Positions 5,828-40,320 of a DNA stretch of 42,024 nt are shown piece by piece. The DNA is from Larix sibirica. Lineage: Eukaryota; Streptophyta; Pinopsida; Pinales; Pinaceae. Within the stretch, counting starts at the first letter, position 1. Every line of letters begins with the position of its first letter. The notes beneath the pieces were generated by a model that worked only from the letters and a program-made list of their open reading frames with translations, was not told the origin of the DNA and ran no database searches. The stretch covers positions 1-42,024 of the forward strand of contig NWUY0304649207.1 in NCBI GenBank assembly GCA_004151065.3, in the 5' to 3' direction. The translations under genes were made by a program, and so were the position numbers.

Positions 5828-5898
5828 AAGGGTGTAGCGTAGTCTGGTTAGCGCATCTGTGTATACAGAGAACATAGGTTCGAATCCTGTAACCCCTC
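5828..5898 (+). pseudogene. trnP: Relic of native mitochondrial tRNA-Pro gene, anticodon deleted
   Basis: The D arm (gcgtagtctggttagcgc), the anticodon stem (tctgt paired with acaga) and the T arm (ataggttcgaatcctgt) match the native plant mitochondrial tRNA-Pro(UGG) as I know it. The anticodon loop has shrunk from seven bases to four (gtat), so the UGG anticodon is gone. The variable loop has also lost about one base, and the acceptor stem (aagggtg against aacccct) has two mismatches. The molecule cannot read a codon or fold normally, so this is a dead copy. In plant mitochondria trnP often lies near trnF or trnS, but I see neither here. It is the best single indication that the window is mitochondrial. 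Confidence 0.85.
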
Positions 5899-5972
5899 CC
5901 ACCTAGTTTCTACCTTCTTAATTGATTTCATTTATTATGAGCCTTAGTGTTAGTAATTGAATGTGTCTTAAT

Positions 5973-6000
5973 GAGCCTCCCCTAGAATGAGGGGGCACTC
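5973..6000 (+). repeat. Hairpin repeat family, copy 1
   Basis: The sequence gagcctcccctagaatgag continues into a G run. The stem is cccct paired with aggggg-side bases around a six-base loop (agaatg). Copies are at 6903, 7911 and 32380. Confidence 0.75.
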
Positions 6001-13503: not shown

Positions 13504-14001
13504 ATTGATCCGGCGTGTCTCAGCAACACAAACGAGGGTTATATAACCAATGTGAGATCCCGAACCTGTTTAAAAGCGATTGAGATTGGCCTCATGGTCG
13601 TGTGTAAACTCGTCCCCCCGATAAGCAGGCTTTATTGGGTGCGGGTGAGCGTTAGCGAGGAGCCTACTCGTGTTTTACCAAAAGGTTATAAACGAATGCT
13701 CGACCAATTCTTTTATGAAGTGTGATGTGAATCTTCTTCACGAGTAGCATAATTACATATTAAATAATTGACTGTATTGAGTGATATCTCTATCGAGGAT
13801 TGGGTTTATACCGGTGGTGCAGGTGCTTGGTCGTGGTGCAGGTGCCCGCCCCTCCCAGTAAAAAAATATATATATTACTTTCTATTTTATTGGTGCGGGT
13901 GTAGGATGGGTTCTAGAGCAACTAACTATACGGACACACCAAGGGGAATGGGTTTTGTGGAAGATAAGCAACCATAGCATATATTTATTGGCAAGAGTAT
14001 A
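13504..14001. other. Unassigned spacer
   Basis: Contains the rest of the unrecognised 81-codon plus frame and a second one of 69 codons (13768-13977). The phrase ggtggtgcaggtgcttggtcgtggtgcaggtgc near 13813 is a short internal duplication. Confidence 0.4.
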
Positions 14002-20375: not shown

Positions 20376-20815
20376 TTATACGTCGGCCATAGCCCTGACC
20401 GTGCTGACAAATGTAAACACGTTAAGCTTCACACCTTCACAATGCATTTGATAAAAGAGCCTCAAAGCCTCCTGAGGAAACCCATTCTGTGCATATCCTG
20501 CAATCATTGCCGTCCATGACACTGTATTTATTTGGGACATTTTGTAAAACACTTGGCGTGCATCCAATAATATCCCACACTTTATATACATAGTGATAAG
20601 AATGTTACTCAAGAAGACGGCAGGCTTTAAACCCATTTTGATCATATGGGCATGTACGCGCTGGCCTTCTGGCCATGCTTTTACGTAAATACAAGTCTGC
20701 AAGAGAGAGACATACACAGTTGTGTCCACCCACATGCCCGGCTGCTCTGTGAAATGTCAAATATCTAGCGCCTCTTTCAATAAACCCACCTTAATTCTTT
20801 TTTTCCTGAATCCTC
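20376..20815 (-). pseudogene. PPR protein (PLS class) gene fragment
   Basis: The minus frame 20735-20376 encodes about three pentatricopeptide-repeat motifs. Recognisable pieces are YVSLLQTC, GQRVHAHMIKMG, LSNILITMYIKCG, DARQVFYKM, NTVSWTAMIAGYAQNG and QEALRLFYQM. The spacing is that of plant PLS-class PPR proteins, nuclear-encoded RNA-binding factors that act in organelle RNA editing and processing. Upstream, the same frame continues through an in-frame TGA (20759-20757) into KVGLLKEALDI, which is the expected preceding part. The fragment therefore starts at about 20815. Downstream it ends in VRAMADV and a TAA, and the E and DYW domains are missing. The 5' edge abuts or overlaps the plus-strand retrotransposon fragment. 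It is a dead nuclear gene piece, not an organelle gene. Confidence 0.9.
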
Positions 20816-20829
20816 CGTTAACAGCAATG

Positions 20830-21985
20830 TTGTTGGTAGTAGACAAGTTATTGTTCAAGGGGTGGTTATTGCTTTTACAAGAGTCTGACTTAACCATTGT
20901 GGATAAGCCTGGAAAAAGAATGTGGTAGCATATTTTCTGTCTAGACTAACACACACTGCAGAAAAGATATTATTTATTATGCATTCCCAGATGAACACCT
21001 ATTTTCCATCTAAGCGAAGACCCCATGGTTTGCTGACATGGCCAATTACTTGGCAACAGGGAAGTTTCCTCATCATTTCAGTTATAAAGAATGCTCCAAA
21101 ATAGTGAGACAAAGTGCTACTTACTCTTGGATCAATGGTTACTTGTTCAAACAGGGTCCAGATCATATCCTCAGAAGATGCATTAGAGAGGATGAGGTCC
21201 ATTATATACTGCATGCATGCCATGATGCACCTCCTGGTGGACATTACTCAGCCAAGAAAAGCCTACAAGATACTCCAAGCTTGCTACTATGGGCCAACAC
21301 TGCACAAATATGCACAACACTATGTGTCTCATTGTGATGATTGTAAAAGAATGGGCAAACCAACAAAAAGGGATGAATAACCACTACAGCCCATAGTTTC
21401 CTATGAACCATTTTATAAGTGGGGATTGGATTTTGTGGGGCCAATTGATCCCCCATCAAATAAAAATAACTACATACTAGTTTGCACGGATTATTTGACA
21501 AAGTGGGCAGAAGTGAAAGCACTCAAGTCAGCAAATTATAAAGCTGTAGCAGAATTTATGTATGAAATAATCTTATCAAGATATGGAGTCCCAAGAGAGA
21601 TAGTCACAGACCAAAGAGCACAATTCACTTCAAAGATGATAGAGGACTTGATGAGGACAAATAAAATCAGGCATAAAAAGTCTACACTCTACCATCCTAA
21701 ATAAAATGGGCAAGTTGAAGTCACCAATAGAGAACTGGAAAAGATAAACAAAGACAGTACAGCAGCATAAAAGGGATTGGGCAAATAGACTTCTTGAAGC
21801 AGTATGGGCTTATAACATCATCCACAAAAAAACTACAGGGTTCACCCCTTGCCCTCCCTTTGGTAAAGCAAGCCTTTCCTTATGAATTGGTCTTTGGAAA
21901 TAAAGTGATTTTACCCATAGAATTTGAACATAAGACACTCAGAACAGCCTCACAGTTAAACTTGGACATCAGCTACTGCAGGACT
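20830..21985 (+). mobile_element. Ty3/gypsy pol fragment: end of RNase H, HHCC domain, integrase
   Basis: The fragment opens with the end of RNase H (WLLLLQESDLTIVDKPGK, then a one-base frameshift to VAYFLSRLTHTAEK) and continues through FPDEHLFSI. The HHCC zinc-binding domain follows (HACHDAPPGGH, a frameshift near 21250, then SHCDDCKRMG). After a TAA at about 21379 comes the integrase core. The catalytic residues are all visible in one frame: D at 21429-21431 (GLDFVGP), D at 21609-21611 (VTDQ) and E at 21717-21719 (GQVEVTNRE). The D-to-E spacing is the standard 35 residues. A TAA sits just before GQVE. A frameshift near 21745 leads to DWANRLLEAVWAYN, and a 31-nt insertion at 21851 precedes YELVFGN and LNLDISYC. 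The element cannot be active, and no LTR is seen. Confidence 0.93.
21847..21881. mobile_element. 35-nt Bpu-like insertion with CCTT direct repeats
   Basis: In this integrase family the conserved TGFTP is followed directly by YELVFG. Here 31 nt are inserted at exactly that point. The target word CCTT (21847-21850) is repeated at the far end (21878-21881), which gives a 27-nt core between two CCTT copies. In reverse complement the ends are AAGG. Bpu elements of Cycas mitochondrial DNA are about 36 nt with terminal AAGG direct repeats, as I recall. This copy lacks a CCTNAGC (Bpu10I) site, so it is a relative or a different small element. A second copy is at 40003. Confidence 0.65.
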
Positions 21986-24900
21986 TTAAGGCTGTCCCCA
22001 AGTAGTAGTTCCTTAGTTGCGGATACGTAACCCTCATCCGCTTAACAGCCAGTGGGTGGTTGTGTACCCGGCGATAAACTACTATTTATATGCTATTTCA
22101 GGACCAACCTTTCAAATTGATTTCCTACCTATTCTTTCCTACCTACCCACTTATTACTAATGGGGAAGGAAGCTTCTCCGCTGCCACAACCACAACCTCC
22201 ACTTTGTGCTCTCCTTGCAACTTGAAAACATGCACCATTTAAACAAACACCATGCACCATGTACCACGCTGCAGCCTTCTCTGCAACAACTCGCAAGTGC
22301 CCTCTCAACAAAGGCTCACATGCAATCTTTTACCTATATAAAGCTTGATAAAATGATGAACATGGGGAAAACCATTAGACCCAACCCCGGCTTGTTTCTC
22401 TTTGGTTATCGTATAGCTTCTTGCCCCGATCAACTAAGCACTTATATTTCTTCTAGATTCATACTTAGATTTATGCTACGATTCATATCATGTGTACGTA
22501 CAAGTAATCGGGCAGGGGTATACGTAGTGAAAAGTAAAGGAAACAGGTGAGGGCGGGCCAGTCATGTCAACTAAGCGTCAATCATTAATGAACTTGGCCT
22601 TCCTTTTAGGTCAATTCCTGATTACAGATCTCTACTTAGACCTATCGTTGGTGATTTTACCGTTTTTAATATGGCAATATATAACATTTATCAGCATTAA
22701 TTCTTAGCCCGCGGGTGGGCAGGCACCAGGCACAAAGGGAGTATAGGTCGCAGATGCAGTTTATCCGGATCGAGACCCAGTGCCATCAGTAGCAGAACCA
22801 AAATGAGCCTCTGATCTTTGTAAACGAGACCTCTACCTTTCTGAGCTAGATCCATATTATGATGATCTTCGTAAGCGAAACCCAAAAGCGTAGGGAGCAG
22901 TTTTATACCCAGCAGCATAGGCAAAGGCATAAGTGGTATTATAGACAGGGGCAAGGGCATACCTAGGGGCTTGCGTAGGCATCTAAGGCAGAGGTAGCAG
23001 CCCTACTAACTATAGTTCCAAAGCGAGTCATTCAGTAACAGCCGTTGATTCAGACTTTCTTTTTGTTATTCGCTCAAGAAATAAATCCATGCATCCCTGG
23101 TCACTCACCCACTAACTAACTAACTTGTTTCTGGGAGGGCCTGATCTTAAAATGCTCCAAGCGGGCTTGCTTGCCGTCAGCCCTCACTCTAGCGCCAAAA
23201 TGTTGACACGGTAAAATACCCCTTGTAAACCACATATGCTTACCCGGCGCGGCGTCAGAACCATTTGTTTGTTGCAAGGGCGATAAAGGAAAGACACTAA
23301 CTAAAGGCACATCATAGGTCCCGGCCGGATAAAGAGAAAGGTGGCGCAACTCGAGTCGAGCTGGCAGCAGGTACCCAACCAAATCAAATTCATTAATTAA
23401 GACAGACAGCACTTGCACAACTCCAGCTTTTAGAATAGAAGTTTGGTACCAACCACTATTTAGATTTACCTTCTGCTTGACCTCTTCTGCCTACTTGCTT
23501 TATTTATGTGCATGCATGCCTTCGGCCTTTTTGTTTTAAACCACCCTTTACTTGCCGCCATCTTTTCTTATTGAATTTACCCACTTTTCAAGGACAGGGC
23601 TCACCTGAGGGTAGGAGGGTTAAGCATTAGCGGCTGCTAAGTAATATCTCCCATCAATCTACCATCAGCTAGTTATAAACCGTGCTAAAAAAGTCTACAA
23701 ATAGTAATTATTATACTTGTTTTTTTGCTACAGATAGATCAGCTGCTGAAACTACTGCTTTTGCTCGAAAAATTGCCTCTGCACCTAACAAATCTGCATA
23801 TGGATCTGGAGCTCGATCTGGACAAAGCAGTAACTAACAGGCTTTCAAGCGAGCTCTGTTGCCATATTATTGCCTCTGGTGCTGGGGAAACCCCTGTTCT
23901 ACCCGCCTTTGCCTTTACTGCAGAGCTTTGCTGCTGGTTCATCAACTGGATTATTATATTTCGGTATGTGAAGCTCACTAAACAAAGGCAAGAAAGAAAC
24001 TGTTAACGGTTCGTCTCGCCTTCCCAACCTGTAAATAAAGAGGCATAGCCGGTACCATAGGTGTTGTCCCCACTTGCCCATCTTCGGTAACTAGAGGAAG
24101 CTAATCTATTTCTTTTATTTATCTATCTCTTTGTCCGCTCTATCTTTGTATACAACTACTAAGATGGTTAGCTCTTTCTTGAAGCACTCCTTCCTAAAGG
24201 GTTTGCTATTAAAGCACTACTTCTTTGTAGCTCCCTACTTGTCCTATTCTAGCTACCTACTTTTTCTATGGCCCTACTTGTGCTAAAGCACCCTGTGCTA
24301 TTAAAGTGATACAACTACTAGAGCTAAGCAAGCTAGGAATTACTACAGCTAGAAAATAATCTTAGTAAAGCTAGCAACTACTATAGCAGTGATACAACTA
24401 CTAAGCTATGAACTGCTGTAGCTAAAGTCAGACCCCTGCTACAAAGAGAAGATAAAGCAGCCTAAACACCTGCCCCATACACCTGCTAGATAAATAAAAG
24501 GAAACCTAATAAAGGAAGGAATAAAGGGATAGCTACTCTACAGACCTACTAGAGGACAGATAAAAAATATACTAATAGAAGATACCTACTAGTAGAAACT
24601 GGAGTCCTAGAAATAGTCCTACTAGAAGACCTACTACTAAGAGTAAGAAGAAACCTACTATTATACGACCTACTCGACTATTAGACATACCTGCTAAGCG
24701 TTGACCTACTATCCTACTAGGTGGGAAAGATCAACAAGCTCAAAGAGAGCCTAAAGAGCTAGTAAAAGCGTTGTCTTGCTTGCTTATCAACAATCCCTAC
24801 TAGGTAATCCCAACGTTGGACCTATTAATCAACTAAGGTCAGGTAAGAAACCACCTATTTCCCGCCAACGATCAAGCTTTCAAAATGTGAATTCACCAAG

Positions 24901-26138: not shown

Positions 26139-28023
26139 TCCCTCGGTGGAGAAACTTCAAAGTATATACAGAAACTCTTAAGTCAATTTTATTGCATGAA
26201 ACCCCCTCATAGCCGGTGTTTTCGTAGCTTGATGGAGCTTCCTCTGATCACGGAGCTATCTTGTATTTTATTAGTACAACTCAAAGTGGCTCGACCAGAG
26301 GGAGAGGAGGCAACTAGCTCTTTCTTTACTCTCTTCTTTCCTCCCGTATTGTGGATGTACTGTTATTATATGTAATAACGCTATGCAAAAGTTTGTTTTT
26401 TATAGATAAAACACTGGGTGGAGGGTGGGCGAAGGTCATGCCTTGTGGTTTGGTTCACTAACGAGGGTTAGCCTTGCCTGTGAAAGCCTGTAAGCGCATG
26501 GTTGGATGCTGGTGGGCTTTGTGATTTTATATTCTTTATAAAGAGACACGTCAGAAGTTTGTGGTAGAGGATGGATTCCTCATTGGGATGCTGAAAGTGT
26601 AAATATTCTTAGTAAATAAAAATTCCATTTGGATTAGCACCCTTACCTTATAGCTTATCTTATAGCTAGGAATAACTCCGTCTGTCCTGAGGATTTACCT
26701 TATAGCCAGTATTAGTATAGTTATAGGATTATGACAGTGACGAGCACCCAGTGGATTGGTTTGCACCTGGTTGCTTAGCTTTCGCACAACGGTTCATGAG
26801 TCAGTGGGCATGTCCCGACTGGGTATAAAGACTATGTTCTACAGGGGTTCATGAGGCAAGCGAAAACAGGAGACTAGAGGAAGAGAGACGATCCCTTTTC
26901 CGGGTGGTTCAGGGGTAACCCCCAGGCTCATGAGGCAAGCGAACTCCGGCCCACAGGGTAATAAAGTATATGAAGGGTGGGTTCCTTCCTTAATAATGAA
27001 GATATACCTTTAATAATATAACATAAAAGCACGTATGTCTGCCGAAGGTCTTGAATCGTCCCTTGCTTCGTGGAGCGGTATCGAATAAAGAGACCTAGCC
27101 AGGGGTTAATGTAAAAAGATACCTAATGATCTCCTGAGGAGTCTGTGAGGTTCAATGTCTATGTCTCATGAGTCTTTGCTGAATGAATGGGTAAAGAGCA
27201 CGTCCACGACTATGTATCGAGAGTCTTTACTCAGTTGCTGAGGTTTAAACGCGGGTTGATGAGGGAAGAGTAGCCGGGCACCTGTCCCTGGGCACGTAAC
27301 CACTATCATTAATCTCCCTTTCCCAATGAAACCGATAGAAAGACGAAGCCCTTCTGAGCTAACTCTGTACTTGAATACTCTACTCTAGTATAACATAAAA
27401 TATCTAAATAGTCCAAGCCTCTAGCTCTACCCTGGCTAAGGAGAGTATCCAATCTGTAGGGTTCCTATGAGAATGTATTCCATTGGTGCTTCTTTTCTCG
27501 TTGGCTGGTTTATTTCTGATGCTTCCACGGCGAACTCGAGTTCGCGAGTTGGGTTGCTTGCACACCCGAATGTAGGCTTTCAGGGGCGATCTGTAGTTCA
27601 GGAAGACTACGATGCATTGTGAAATCTAATAGGTTGACCCACGTCTTAGGTTGGGTTAGCTCATCTTTAGGCATCTGTCACATAGTAAGTACCATAGTCC
27701 CGATAGCCACGAATGAGTTACCGAAGGTAATATAGGAGAATGCTTATCTTTCTCTAATGCTTATTTTTCTCTTAGGTCCAGCTGCACCCTGGGCGACTTA
27801 ATGGATACGTAACCCTGGGCCACTAATCTTTATGGGTAGGATAATGAGGGGTCTTAATGTAACACTTTAGGCAGCCTTCTTACTACTTAAGGCGCATTAA
27901 CCCGGTATTTCGCTGTCCCAGATACTTCGTATTAATTATTTCCTTGTCCCATAGACTGAACTGATATGCCTGTAGTGATGATAGCATTGCTAATCCGAAG
28001 CCTATAGCGGGTTAATCACTAGC
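26139..28023. other. Spacer without recognisable genes
   Basis: No open frame above 60 codons after 26375. The frame 26031-26375 beyond 26138 is a random extension of the retrotransposon frame. Short shared words link 26.97-27.82 kb to 17.95-22.03 kb. Confidence 0.5.
26849..26943. repeat. 16-bp direct repeat, 79-bp offset
   Basis: The word tcatgaggcaagcgaa occurs at 26849-26864 and at 26928-26943, identical in both places. Confidence 0.9.
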
Positions 28024-31285: not shown

Positions 31286-32379
31286 AATCATAATAATTTA
31301 TCACTTGCACTTGTACTCTGAACGTCGGCCTTACAACAAAAAAACCTACTTACCTTATTCATTCATTCCTTGGCTATGAACCCTTAAATAAACCATGAAT
31401 AATCATATAACCATGAAGATATTATTTATTACATAGCTGCCACAACGAGAGAGAGACCACACCAATTAAGCTACGTTCCTAGATACAAGCAAGAATAACA
31501 AATAAGATTTCTAGTTCTTTTATAGGATAGATTCTACAAGCTATAGGAGGAAGACCATATCATCGCTAGTGGACACTAATAATTATGAATATTCCTTTGC
31601 ATCATGAAAGACGAAGCGTGGATAGATTCATTTATCCATAATGCTAGACCATTCAATATTCCTCATTGACCCATGCATCATGATTAGGAGGAGCATAGGA
31701 GATTAGGATGAATAACATAAAATATCAATATTTAGGATGGATGAGAAACACATATCATCAATTACATGTTCTTCGCTATGAGATGAGAAACACAACCATA
31801 TCATTTTGTTATATCGCTATGATGAGTTATTTATTTAGCAATTAGAAGTGAGCAAGGTGCATTGTTAATAACATTGCTATACATAGATACAAATGCATTT
31901 TTACTTATTATACGATGCATTCTCCTCAAGAGACTTTGAACTCCTAAGAGATCCTAGATACCTAACTTGACACAACATGAATCCTGGTTCCTAATCTTAT
32001 TGCTAACATCTAATACTTGCATAACCTGGTTCCTAATCTCGTATAGTTATTTACATACTACTTGTCTTTGCTAGTCTTTCCAACTTGTTAACACACGCAA
32101 CTTTTCCTTGGTCTTGGTTCTAGATCCTTCTCTTCTTAGCCAAGTTTTATAACAATGATGATAGGTTCCTGTTCCTAGTCCAGCTTTATAAAACTCTTAT
32201 TGGTCTTTGTTCTTGATGCACTATATCCCAGCTAGATAGAATTCTTATCGGGTCTTGATGCTATGATAGAAGAAAATATTATGTATGGTTTTCGTTGGTT
32301 TCTTGGTTGAAAGCTTCGCGTAACTTTCAAAACCAAATCTCTTAATGTAATGGCTTACTCCTCTTGGCGATAGGAGTGT
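31286..32379. other. Spacer with weak internal repetition
   Basis: gatgagaaacaca and cctggttcctaatct each occur twice (near 31740 and 31785; near 31983 and 32022). The inverted member of the 8.8/9.06-kb family lies at 32133-32204. There are no genes. Confidence 0.5.
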
Positions 32380-32407
32380 GAGCCTCCCCTAGATTGAGGG
32401 GACACTC
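32380..32407 (+). repeat. Hairpin repeat family, copy 2
   Basis: gagcctcccctagattgagg and on. It is the closest match to copy 1 at 5973 (one loop substitution plus one change downstream), with the same cccct stem and six-base loop, 26 kb away. Confidence 0.8.
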
Positions 32408-34515: not shown

Positions 34516-35240
34516 AACAGATTATTAAAACAATCTCTGTCACCATTTTCATTTAGCAACAACTAGGTTTTAGGAGGTCGGAGGCCCCTCATCACGGGTA
34601 CTAAAAAGAATTTATTATTCCTCAAACTTGCCATTTAATTAACTTTATCCATGTTTCTTTAGGCCGGATTGATTCAATTGCTTCTCGAGCCCCTTTACCC
34701 TTGAGACTATTTTACTTTCCCTTTTACTTTACGACTTGAGCACTACCGTTTGGAGCAGGTACAATGTTTCGGTGGAACAGATCTTTTCAAACCTTCTCTC
34801 CTTTTAGTCGAGTGGCTCCGCTCCTCATTCCCAATTTTCATTTTGTTAAACCTCGTTTTTAGGAGATCCAAGCAGGTATATAATCTGGGCCACTCAAATA
34901 TATTTTTTATTTGATAAATTTGGAGCGAAGCCGCTTGTCCTTCATAGGGCAAGGATTTGAAAAACTTTATTATTCGCAGGATGGAATCAATTGCTGGGCG
35001 GGGATACTCGACTGCGCTACTAGGCAGGGCGGCTTGGCTTTGATACCGGGCTTTGATACTTGTTGGCTGCTGGCATATTCGATCGACTGCGCTACTCACA
35101 CTGCTTTGCTTGGATACTCAGAATGGGATGGACACAGTCATTGCTGCAAGGTCATTGCTTGAAGATAAATTGACATAGCTGATAGTCAATACAGGTGGAA
35201 ATGCGCTCCATGCTGCTGATACTCAATCCAGTAGATCCAA
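34516..35240. other. Spacer with a small decayed repeat
   Basis: tcgactgcgctact occurs at 35008-35021 and 35083-35096, and ggctttgatac occurs twice between them. A 118-codon minus frame (34743-35099) and an 83-codon plus frame (34911-35162) overlap over this repeat. Neither is recognised. Confidence 0.4.
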
Positions 35241-39650: not shown

Positions 39651-40320
39651 CGGGAGTATGACCAGATATTTTTGGATCTAATGAGAAGAACGACCGCAAA
39701 TGGCCTTTGAAGCCATTTAAAGCCATCCAGTCAAGTTCCTACAACGTGGGTGAAGCGTACCCCATCTTTCTCTTAGTTCAATCCCCATTCTGTACCCTAT
39801 AGGTGCTCATGTTGAAAGTGCACCCGGGATTCGCTTTGTTGCATCCGGCTCAACAGACATTTGTCCATTTGGTTTTCCACCTGGCCAATTATTAAGTGAA
39901 GGCAGGCGCCCAGGCCCAAGGCGGAGGGACAATTCATAATTCATTGAGTTGGCTAAAGCAAAATGATAGTTCTCAACCCCAATGGCAATATGCCGACCTT
40001 CCCCTTGCTCTCCCTTTGGTCAAGCAAGTCTTCCGTCCACACACAGATTTGCTTTATAAAATACGCAGTTGGCGAAGGCTTTGGGGATATATACCGGAAA
40101 CACCCTCAAAAGAACCATTTAAAGGGCGCTGTTCGCATAATTTATTTAGAGTAGGCTTCGCTCCTCACTGCTGCGCGCCTCTTATGCTGCCCTCCTGGCC
40201 TTAGAGGAAGGAATCACCTTTTCACTGCTCCGCATAATAAAGTTTACTATTAAAAGCGTGAGTTAGTTCGATAACCCAGATGATGAATATGCCTACAAAC
40301 CCGTCAAAACCCACTCCGTG
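39651..40320. other. Spacer between two gag fragments
   Basis: Overlapping plus frames (39896-40204, 39963-40154) are unrecognised and span the second Bpu-like copy. A minus frame (39487-39726) is the gag fragment read out of phase. Confidence 0.4.
40003..40036. mobile_element. Second copy of the Bpu-like 35-nt element
   Basis: ccttgctctccctttggtca and the next bases match 21847-21881 at 26 of the first 30 or so positions. The right end is CCGT rather than CCTT and one T is missing. The flanks are unrelated to the integrase, so the shared part is the insertion alone. This supports a mobile or copied 30-35-nt unit. Confidence 0.6.

What the first reader, a model, noticed from the sequence alone, without database searches (positions are those of the whole stretch)
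21847..21881. 35-nt insertion in a fossil integrase with CCTT direct repeats, and a second copy at 40003
The integrase text before and after the insertion is contiguous in the family, so the empty site is known to the base. Thirty-one nt were added and the 4-nt word CCTT now stands at both ends. A near copy (one or two indels, four or so substitutions) sits 18 kb away in unrelated DNA. Size and terminal repeats (AAGG on the other strand) recall the Bpu elements of Cycas mtDNA, but the Bpu10I site is missing. It could be a related or undescribed family of miniature mitochondrial mobile elements, and it inserted after the retrotransposon arrived.
Basis: partly seen in the sequence, partly recalled or inferred. 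Interest (0 to 1): 0.75.

Follow-up and report, generated by a model that had tools for sequence, protein, structure and literature searches.

The report
Tiny hairpin jumping element in mitochondrial DNA
A 31-letter insertion inside a dead transposon gene belongs to a family of about three hundred near-identical tiny elements, apparently in this plant's mitochondrial DNA, built like the Bpu elements of cycads but different in sequence, which makes the unknown way such elements spread testable.

Summary
The 35 nt at 21847-21881 are a 31-nt net insertion in a dead Ty3/gypsy integrase. Nine of 10 aligned relatives from presumed nuclear contigs lack exactly 31 nt there; two have one CCTT at the junction. 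The sequence is one of 320 copies (3 mismatches allowed; a lower bound) in the window's assembly, control 0; 215 share one 30-mer. One copy lies on the contig of an intact cox1, so the family occurs in mitochondrial DNA. Copies lie in unrelated flanks, in 31-nt tandem arrays and nested inside each other at an internal CCTT: a mobile element inserting at CCTT. Its ends are unequal: left CCTT in 215 of 219 exact core copies, right CCTTT+CCTT in 126 of 219. The AAGG strand folds into a short tail plus 7-bp hairpin, the architecture of Bpu, and a few copies have a Bpu-like tail. It fails Bpu's working definition (over 7 differences in the forms aligned), so I call it a probable sister family. Best mechanism, inferred: copying from an AAGG-ended hairpin RNA primed by a target CCTT end; DNA template switching is the main rival. 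Host lineage was not established.

The parts
21847..21881 (-). copy 1 of the element, 35 nt with terminal CCTT/AAGG repeats (net insertion 31 nt); the hairpin-forming AAGG strand is the minus strand
40003..40036 (-). copy 2, GCTC..AAGT form, right end changed (CTTCCGT), embedded in a larger dispersed repeat
21261..21377 (+). dead integrase, zinc-binding piece (Pfam Integrase_H2C2, 2.9e-05, 24.6 bits, just under its cut-off of 25.5)
21381..21701 (+). dead integrase, core piece (Pfam rve 4.6e-12)
21802..21846 (+). integrase coding text left of the insertion
21882..21967 (+). integrase coding text right of the insertion, aligned with nine relatives

Best explanation
It is a copy of a non-coding, miniature mobile element family of this plant's mitochondrial DNA. 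SHOWN: high copy number in unrelated sites, insertion at CCTT, a nearly invariant left end with a variable right end, a conserved hairpin on the AAGG strand. INFERRED: a short RNA of the AAGG strand (9-nt tail, hairpin, AAGG 3' end) is copied into DNA at a nick or break; the target's ...CCTT-3' end pairs with the RNA's AAGG-3' end and primes synthesis; copying ends at or near the RNA's 5' AAGG, whose CCTT copy rejoins the target by microhomology. This gives CCTT-27 nt-CCTT at a site that had one CCTT. The reverse transcriptase would be supplied in trans (mitochondrial intron maturases are candidates, recalled). I put the identification above 0.95 and this mechanism at about 0.45; the number below is for the whole statement.
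For: 320 copies at up to 3 mismatches, reversed-pattern control 0; 215 identical 30-mers, control 0. In 242 kb (two contigs, chosen because they hold copies, and the window) 38 of the 38 non-simple 16-mers occurring six times or more are its words. Empty site: 9 of 10 aligned relatives lack exactly 31 nt, 2 with a single CCTT. Nested copies: a variant sits inside the internal CCTT of outer copies in different flanks. Tandem copies at 31 nt: 11 of 134 fetched copies are followed by another. Ends: left CCTT 215 of 219, right 126 of 219 (Fisher 4e-28); in the 242 kb 15 of 15 left, 9 of 15 right. AAGG strand of the major form as RNA -11.6 kcal/mol against -5.6 for the other strand; 0.12% of 5000 inner shuffles as stable, 0 with 80% of the pairs. 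Stem differences among nine forms keep pairing. cox1 and a copy share contig C19808.
Against: No transcript, enzyme or reverse transcriptase was tested. Exact repeats at both ends also fit DNA template switching. CGTA as right 4-mer in 7 of 67 copies, with no CGTA on the left, is not explained. The end asymmetry would also arise if the left CCTT is simply needed for the stem (three of its four bases pair). Some copies lie in larger repeats, so independent insertions are fewer than 320: of 75 isolated CCTTT-form copies examined, 62 were independent. No empty site was found among the other fetched copies.
Confidence: 0.55

Rival explanations
1. DNA-only template switching: during break repair or stalled replication a nascent strand ending in CCTT switches to an AAGG in an existing copy, copies one unit and switches back at the next AAGG. 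The hairpin and high copy number make existing copies preferred donors.
For: 31-nt tandem arrays, 4-nt repeats at both ends, graded right ends (CCTT 30, CCTA/C/G 12, CCCA 6 of 67), C enriched just before the left CCTT (23 of 62 against 0.148).
Against: Entry is almost always at one CCTT although the element has an internal CCTT; among 15 copies in 242 kb no left-truncated copy was seen apart from the outer part of a nested composite. A stem with G.U pairs on one strand favours RNA.
Confidence: 0.3
2. A CCTT-specific DNA enzyme (transposase, tyrosine recombinase or type IB topoisomerase acting after ...CTT; these preferences are recalled) moves the element and CCTT is target specificity plus duplication.
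For: Strict CCTT on the left and one CCTT in two of nine empty sites.
Against: No terminal inverted repeats seen in the forms; the right 4-mer often differs from the left; 31 nt encode no enzyme.
Confidence: 0.15
3. Not mobile: one short word multiplied only as a passenger of larger repeats and recombination.
For: Larger repeat families around some copies, including window 40003; identical long flanks in L013/L014, L016/L017/L023, L033/L039; L030/L095 share only the left flank.
Against: 62 isolated copies with unrelated flanks on either side, the empty site in the integrase, nested copies.
Confidence: 0.04

Closest known systems
Bpu elements of Cycas and Ginkgo mitochondrial DNA (original papers Chaw 2008 and Guo 2016 not looked up; consensus letters read in passages of PMC8297867)
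   Same: 35 against 36 nt; AAGG direct repeats at both ends on the same strand; same RNA architecture as the Cycas consensus (9-nt tail, 7 against 8 bp stem, 2-nt internal loop, 2 bp, 3-nt loop); hundreds of copies, about 500 and 100 reported; a few copies here have tails AAGGATATC or AGGTTATC close to Bpu's AAGGTTATC.
   Different: Stem and loop sequence differ; more than 7 differences from the Cycas consensus in the three forms printed; 0 matches at 3 mismatches in this assembly; no Bpu10I site in nine forms.
GC clusters of yeast mtDNA such as GC42 (PMC4478555, passages)
   Same: Structured non-coding mobile elements of about 40 nt with short flanking direct repeats, mergers of units and an unknown transposition mechanism.
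   Different: Repeats there are AG or ACT; no sequence relation tested; fungal.
Repetitive hairpin-forming elements of sponge mtDNA and double-hairpin elements of fungal mtDNA (search listing only)
   Same: Small hairpin repeats in mitochondrial DNA.
   Different: Not compared in sequence.

Membership tests
Bpu elements | AAGG terminal direct repeats | tested here: met
   left end in 215 and right end in 126 of 219 exact core copies, counted in separate searches
Bpu elements | within 7 mismatches and gaps of the 36-nt Cycas consensus (definition in PMC8297867) | tested here: not met
   13, 11 and 11 differences for the three forms printed (major, L005, TATA); 0 genome matches at 3 mismatches; 4 to 7 mismatches were not searched genome-wide
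Bpu elements | Bpu10I recognition site (CCTNAGC, recalled; printed CCTGAAGC in the paper) | tested here: not met
   absent from nine forms; present in the Cycas consensus but, by this test, not in the printed Ginkgo consensus either
Bpu elements | high copy number in plant mitochondrial DNA | tested here: met
   320 copies, one on the cox1 contig; location of each copy not tested
Bpu elements | tail-plus-hairpin fold on the AAGG strand (my comparison, not a published criterion) | tested here: met
Bpu elements | common descent | tested here: inconclusive
   alignment against 2000 inner shuffles: p 0.016 (Cycas) and 0.046 (Ginkgo) for the major form, about 0.04 for the second, 0.0005 or less for two variants picked after inspection; the opposite orientation is not significant
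Target-primed retroelements | RNA intermediate and reverse transcriptase | not testable with these tools
   no RNA data held

The most novel reading that the evidence does not exclude
The family is among the smallest known retroelements: a 35-nt hairpin RNA with a fixed AAGG 3' end that inserts itself at CCTT by target-primed reverse transcription inside mitochondria. Bpu of cycads and Ginkgo would be its sister, so an ancient superfamily keeps fold and ends while its sequence turns over, and scans with the Cycas consensus miss it.
Probability: 0.3. Interest if true: 0.85.

Novelty: new variant of a known kind. Interest (0 to 1): 0.62.

Why it matters
[quoted passage not shown] Two of these papers state that they searched with the Cycas consensus (PMC6971862, PMC8297867); that query would not find the family described here at 3 mismatches. 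A family with the same ends and fold but another sequence suggests searching by architecture, gives a second data set, and supplies an end asymmetry and nested insertions that constrain the unsolved mechanism of spread.

Tried and rejected
Exact scans outside the own genome: viral contigs and genome contigs gave 0 hits. No collection of plant mitogenomes was on hand, so relatives of the host could not be searched. Empty sites among the 89 sequences then held (L001-L088 and the window): none apart from self and tandem matches, in an output that was cut in the middle for other matches. The idea that the CCCA class shows right-end read-through: 7 places carry GCAAGCCTTTCCCACCAG, but three are one duplicated site, and L088 and L157 also share eight letters on the left, so I do not use it as evidence. 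Host lineage by chlB: no match, inconclusive. Single-strand DNA folding gave z-scores of -0.3 and -0.9 for the two strands of copy 1 and about -2.9 and -3.3 for copy 2; RNA folding of both strands was used instead. The 29-nt hairpin repeat at 5972 and 32379 had no other copy within 6 mismatches in 242 kb.

Full report
What is there. Window 21847-21881 reads CCTTGCCCTCCCTTTGGTAAAGCAAGCCTTTCCTT. A second copy at 40003 matches 27 of 30 ungapped; its local score of 24 compares with at most 14 in five whole-window shuffles. Left of the insertion the integrase text runs to ...TTGFTP, right of it it continues YELVFGNKV... in another frame, as a 31-nt insertion requires. Pfam finds the integrase core upstream (rve, 4.6e-12).

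Empty site. A search of the window's own assembly with 21640-22000 gave 47 matches from 40 of 217 candidates scored. Fifteen places on contigs numbered C17007 or lower are integrase relatives, which I presume nuclear; hits on higher contigs, the window aside, cover little beyond the element (query 199 to 276 at most). Of the 15, I cut out and aligned 10: 9 lack exactly 31 nt, 1 is not alignable at the site; 2 of the 9 read ACCTTATGA, one CCTT, the other 7 differ by a base or two in that word. So the insertion came after this integrase sequence was laid down, and CCTT was probably single in the empty site.

Family. The assembly (618 Mb, 19862 contigs) holds 320 copies at up to 3 mismatches with 0 for the reversed pattern; the tool calls such counts lower bounds. 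The dominant 30-mer occurs exactly 215 times, two others together 40 times (exact rows), so 255 of 320 are three sequences. In 242 kb of contiguous sequence (two contigs chosen because they hold copies, and the window), all 38 non-simple 16-mers occurring six times or more are its words (completing), and there are 15 copies.

Genome. cox1 is intact on contig C19808 at 568-1902, which also carries a copy at 13665-13694; contig C17742, with nine places at up to 7 mismatches in 100 kb, has a group II intron match, while 100 kb of C17681 had no Rfam match. The places listed (100 each) lie on contigs numbered C17577 and above except two on C15448 and C15453. I take the family as mitochondrial; that each copy is so was not tested. 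The host is a plant; whether a gymnosperm was not settled.

Mobility. Of 134 distinct fetched copies (loci to L144 and the window), many have CCTT at both ends in unrelated A+T-rich flanks; of 75 isolated CCTTT-form copies 62 are independent. Eleven of the 134 are followed directly by another copy at 31-nt spacing. A variant of 30-nt unit, also found alone (L001), sits inside the internal CCTT of outer copies; the left outer part is visible in L062, L064 and L089, whose flanks differ, and L008 starts within the inner copy. The composite may itself have been multiplied.

Ends. Of 219 exact core copies, 215 have CCTT on the left; of the other four, two are seen in the list to be cut by contig ends and two are not listed. 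No exact core copy with the CCTTT end has a base other than T before it. Only 126 of 219 have the full right end. Among 67 isolated copies left after removing 6 two-sided duplicates from 73, right 4-mers are CCTT 30, CGTA 7, CCTC 6, CCCA 6, CCTA 5, others 13. The fetched set was chosen by patterns containing the left end, so the left-end claim rests and on the 242 kb (15 of 15, right 9 of 15). Right CCTT in 30 of 67 against a background of 0.7% is far from chance. CGTA is unexplained.

Fold. As RNA the AAGG strand of the major form gives a 9-nt tail and a 7-bp stem, -11.6 kcal/mol; the other strand gives -5.6. With four letters fixed at each end, 0.12% of 5000 shuffles were as stable and none had 80% of the same pairs; for Cycas Bpu these were 1.7% and 0.08%. 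All nine forms keep an outer stem of at least 7 pairs; the inner part differs in the window copy, L005 and the two loop variants of L107 and L037. Differences at stem positions keep pairing (G.U to A-U, U.G to C-G). The Cycas Bpu consensus folds the same way with 8 pairs; the Ginkgo one similarly with a 10-nt tail.

Relation to Bpu. In reverse complement the major form aligns to Bpu better than inner shuffles (p 0.016 Cycas, 0.046 Ginkgo), the second form at about 0.04; two variants do better (0.0005 or less) but were picked after inspection. Twelve places match AAGGTTATCGCTTGCTCGACC at up to 2 mismatches, control 0: 7 have tail AAGGATATC, 4 AGGTTTATC, 1 GAGGTTATC; Bpu has AAGGTTATC. I judge common descent likely, not proven. 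By the working definition the forms tested are not Bpu.

Literature. In the held library no main text contains CCTTTGGTCAAGCAAG or its complement. Supplements were not searched; the two original Bpu papers were not looked up. For PMC8297867, PMC6971862, PMC7517811, PMC10985005, PMC7486957, PMC4478555, PMC9174605 and PMC9703787 I saw passages only.

Mechanism. Shown: insertion at CCTT, unequal ends, conserved hairpin. Inferred: an RNA with AAGG 3' end primed by target CCTT. Precise intron losses in Taxus mitochondria are attributed to reverse transcription (PMC6971862 passages), so such activity is plausible in plant mitochondria; which enzyme is unknown. DNA template switching explains nearly as much.

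Noticed in passing
window 5972-6000 and 32379-32407: 29-nt repeat TGAGCCTCCCCTAGA(A/T)TGAGGGG(G/A)CACTC, 93% alike, with a hairpin core; no other copy within 6 mismatches in 242 kb.
   Followed up: partly
window 34798-34821 (+), 26281-26304 (-); L027, L052, L005 and others: An older, diverged family CTCCYTTTGGTCGAGCGGCTCCGC, 17 places at up to 7 mismatches in 327 kb of fetched, partly overlapping sequence, reversed control 0; it shares CCTTTGGTC(A/G)AGC with the element and may be its ancestor.
   Followed up: partly
window about 39950-40130; L005, L008, L009, L010, L015, L022, L140, L143: A larger dispersed repeat carries the element at a fixed place, three times within 800 nt on contig C18254.
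   Followed up: partly
L030 and L095: Same left flank for the 45 nt compared, different right flanks: a recombination breakpoint at the element.
   Followed up: no
L019, L025, L085, L096, L108, L119, L144: Seven copies end in CGTA on the right with unrelated further flanks.
   Followed up: partly
window 20376-20735 (-): PPR-protein fragment (Pfam PPR_2 7.9e-17) beside the integrase, presumably nuclear DNA taken up.
   Followed up: no
window 5828-5898 (+): Rfam tRNA match of 36.2 bits not called by ARAGORN.
   Followed up: no
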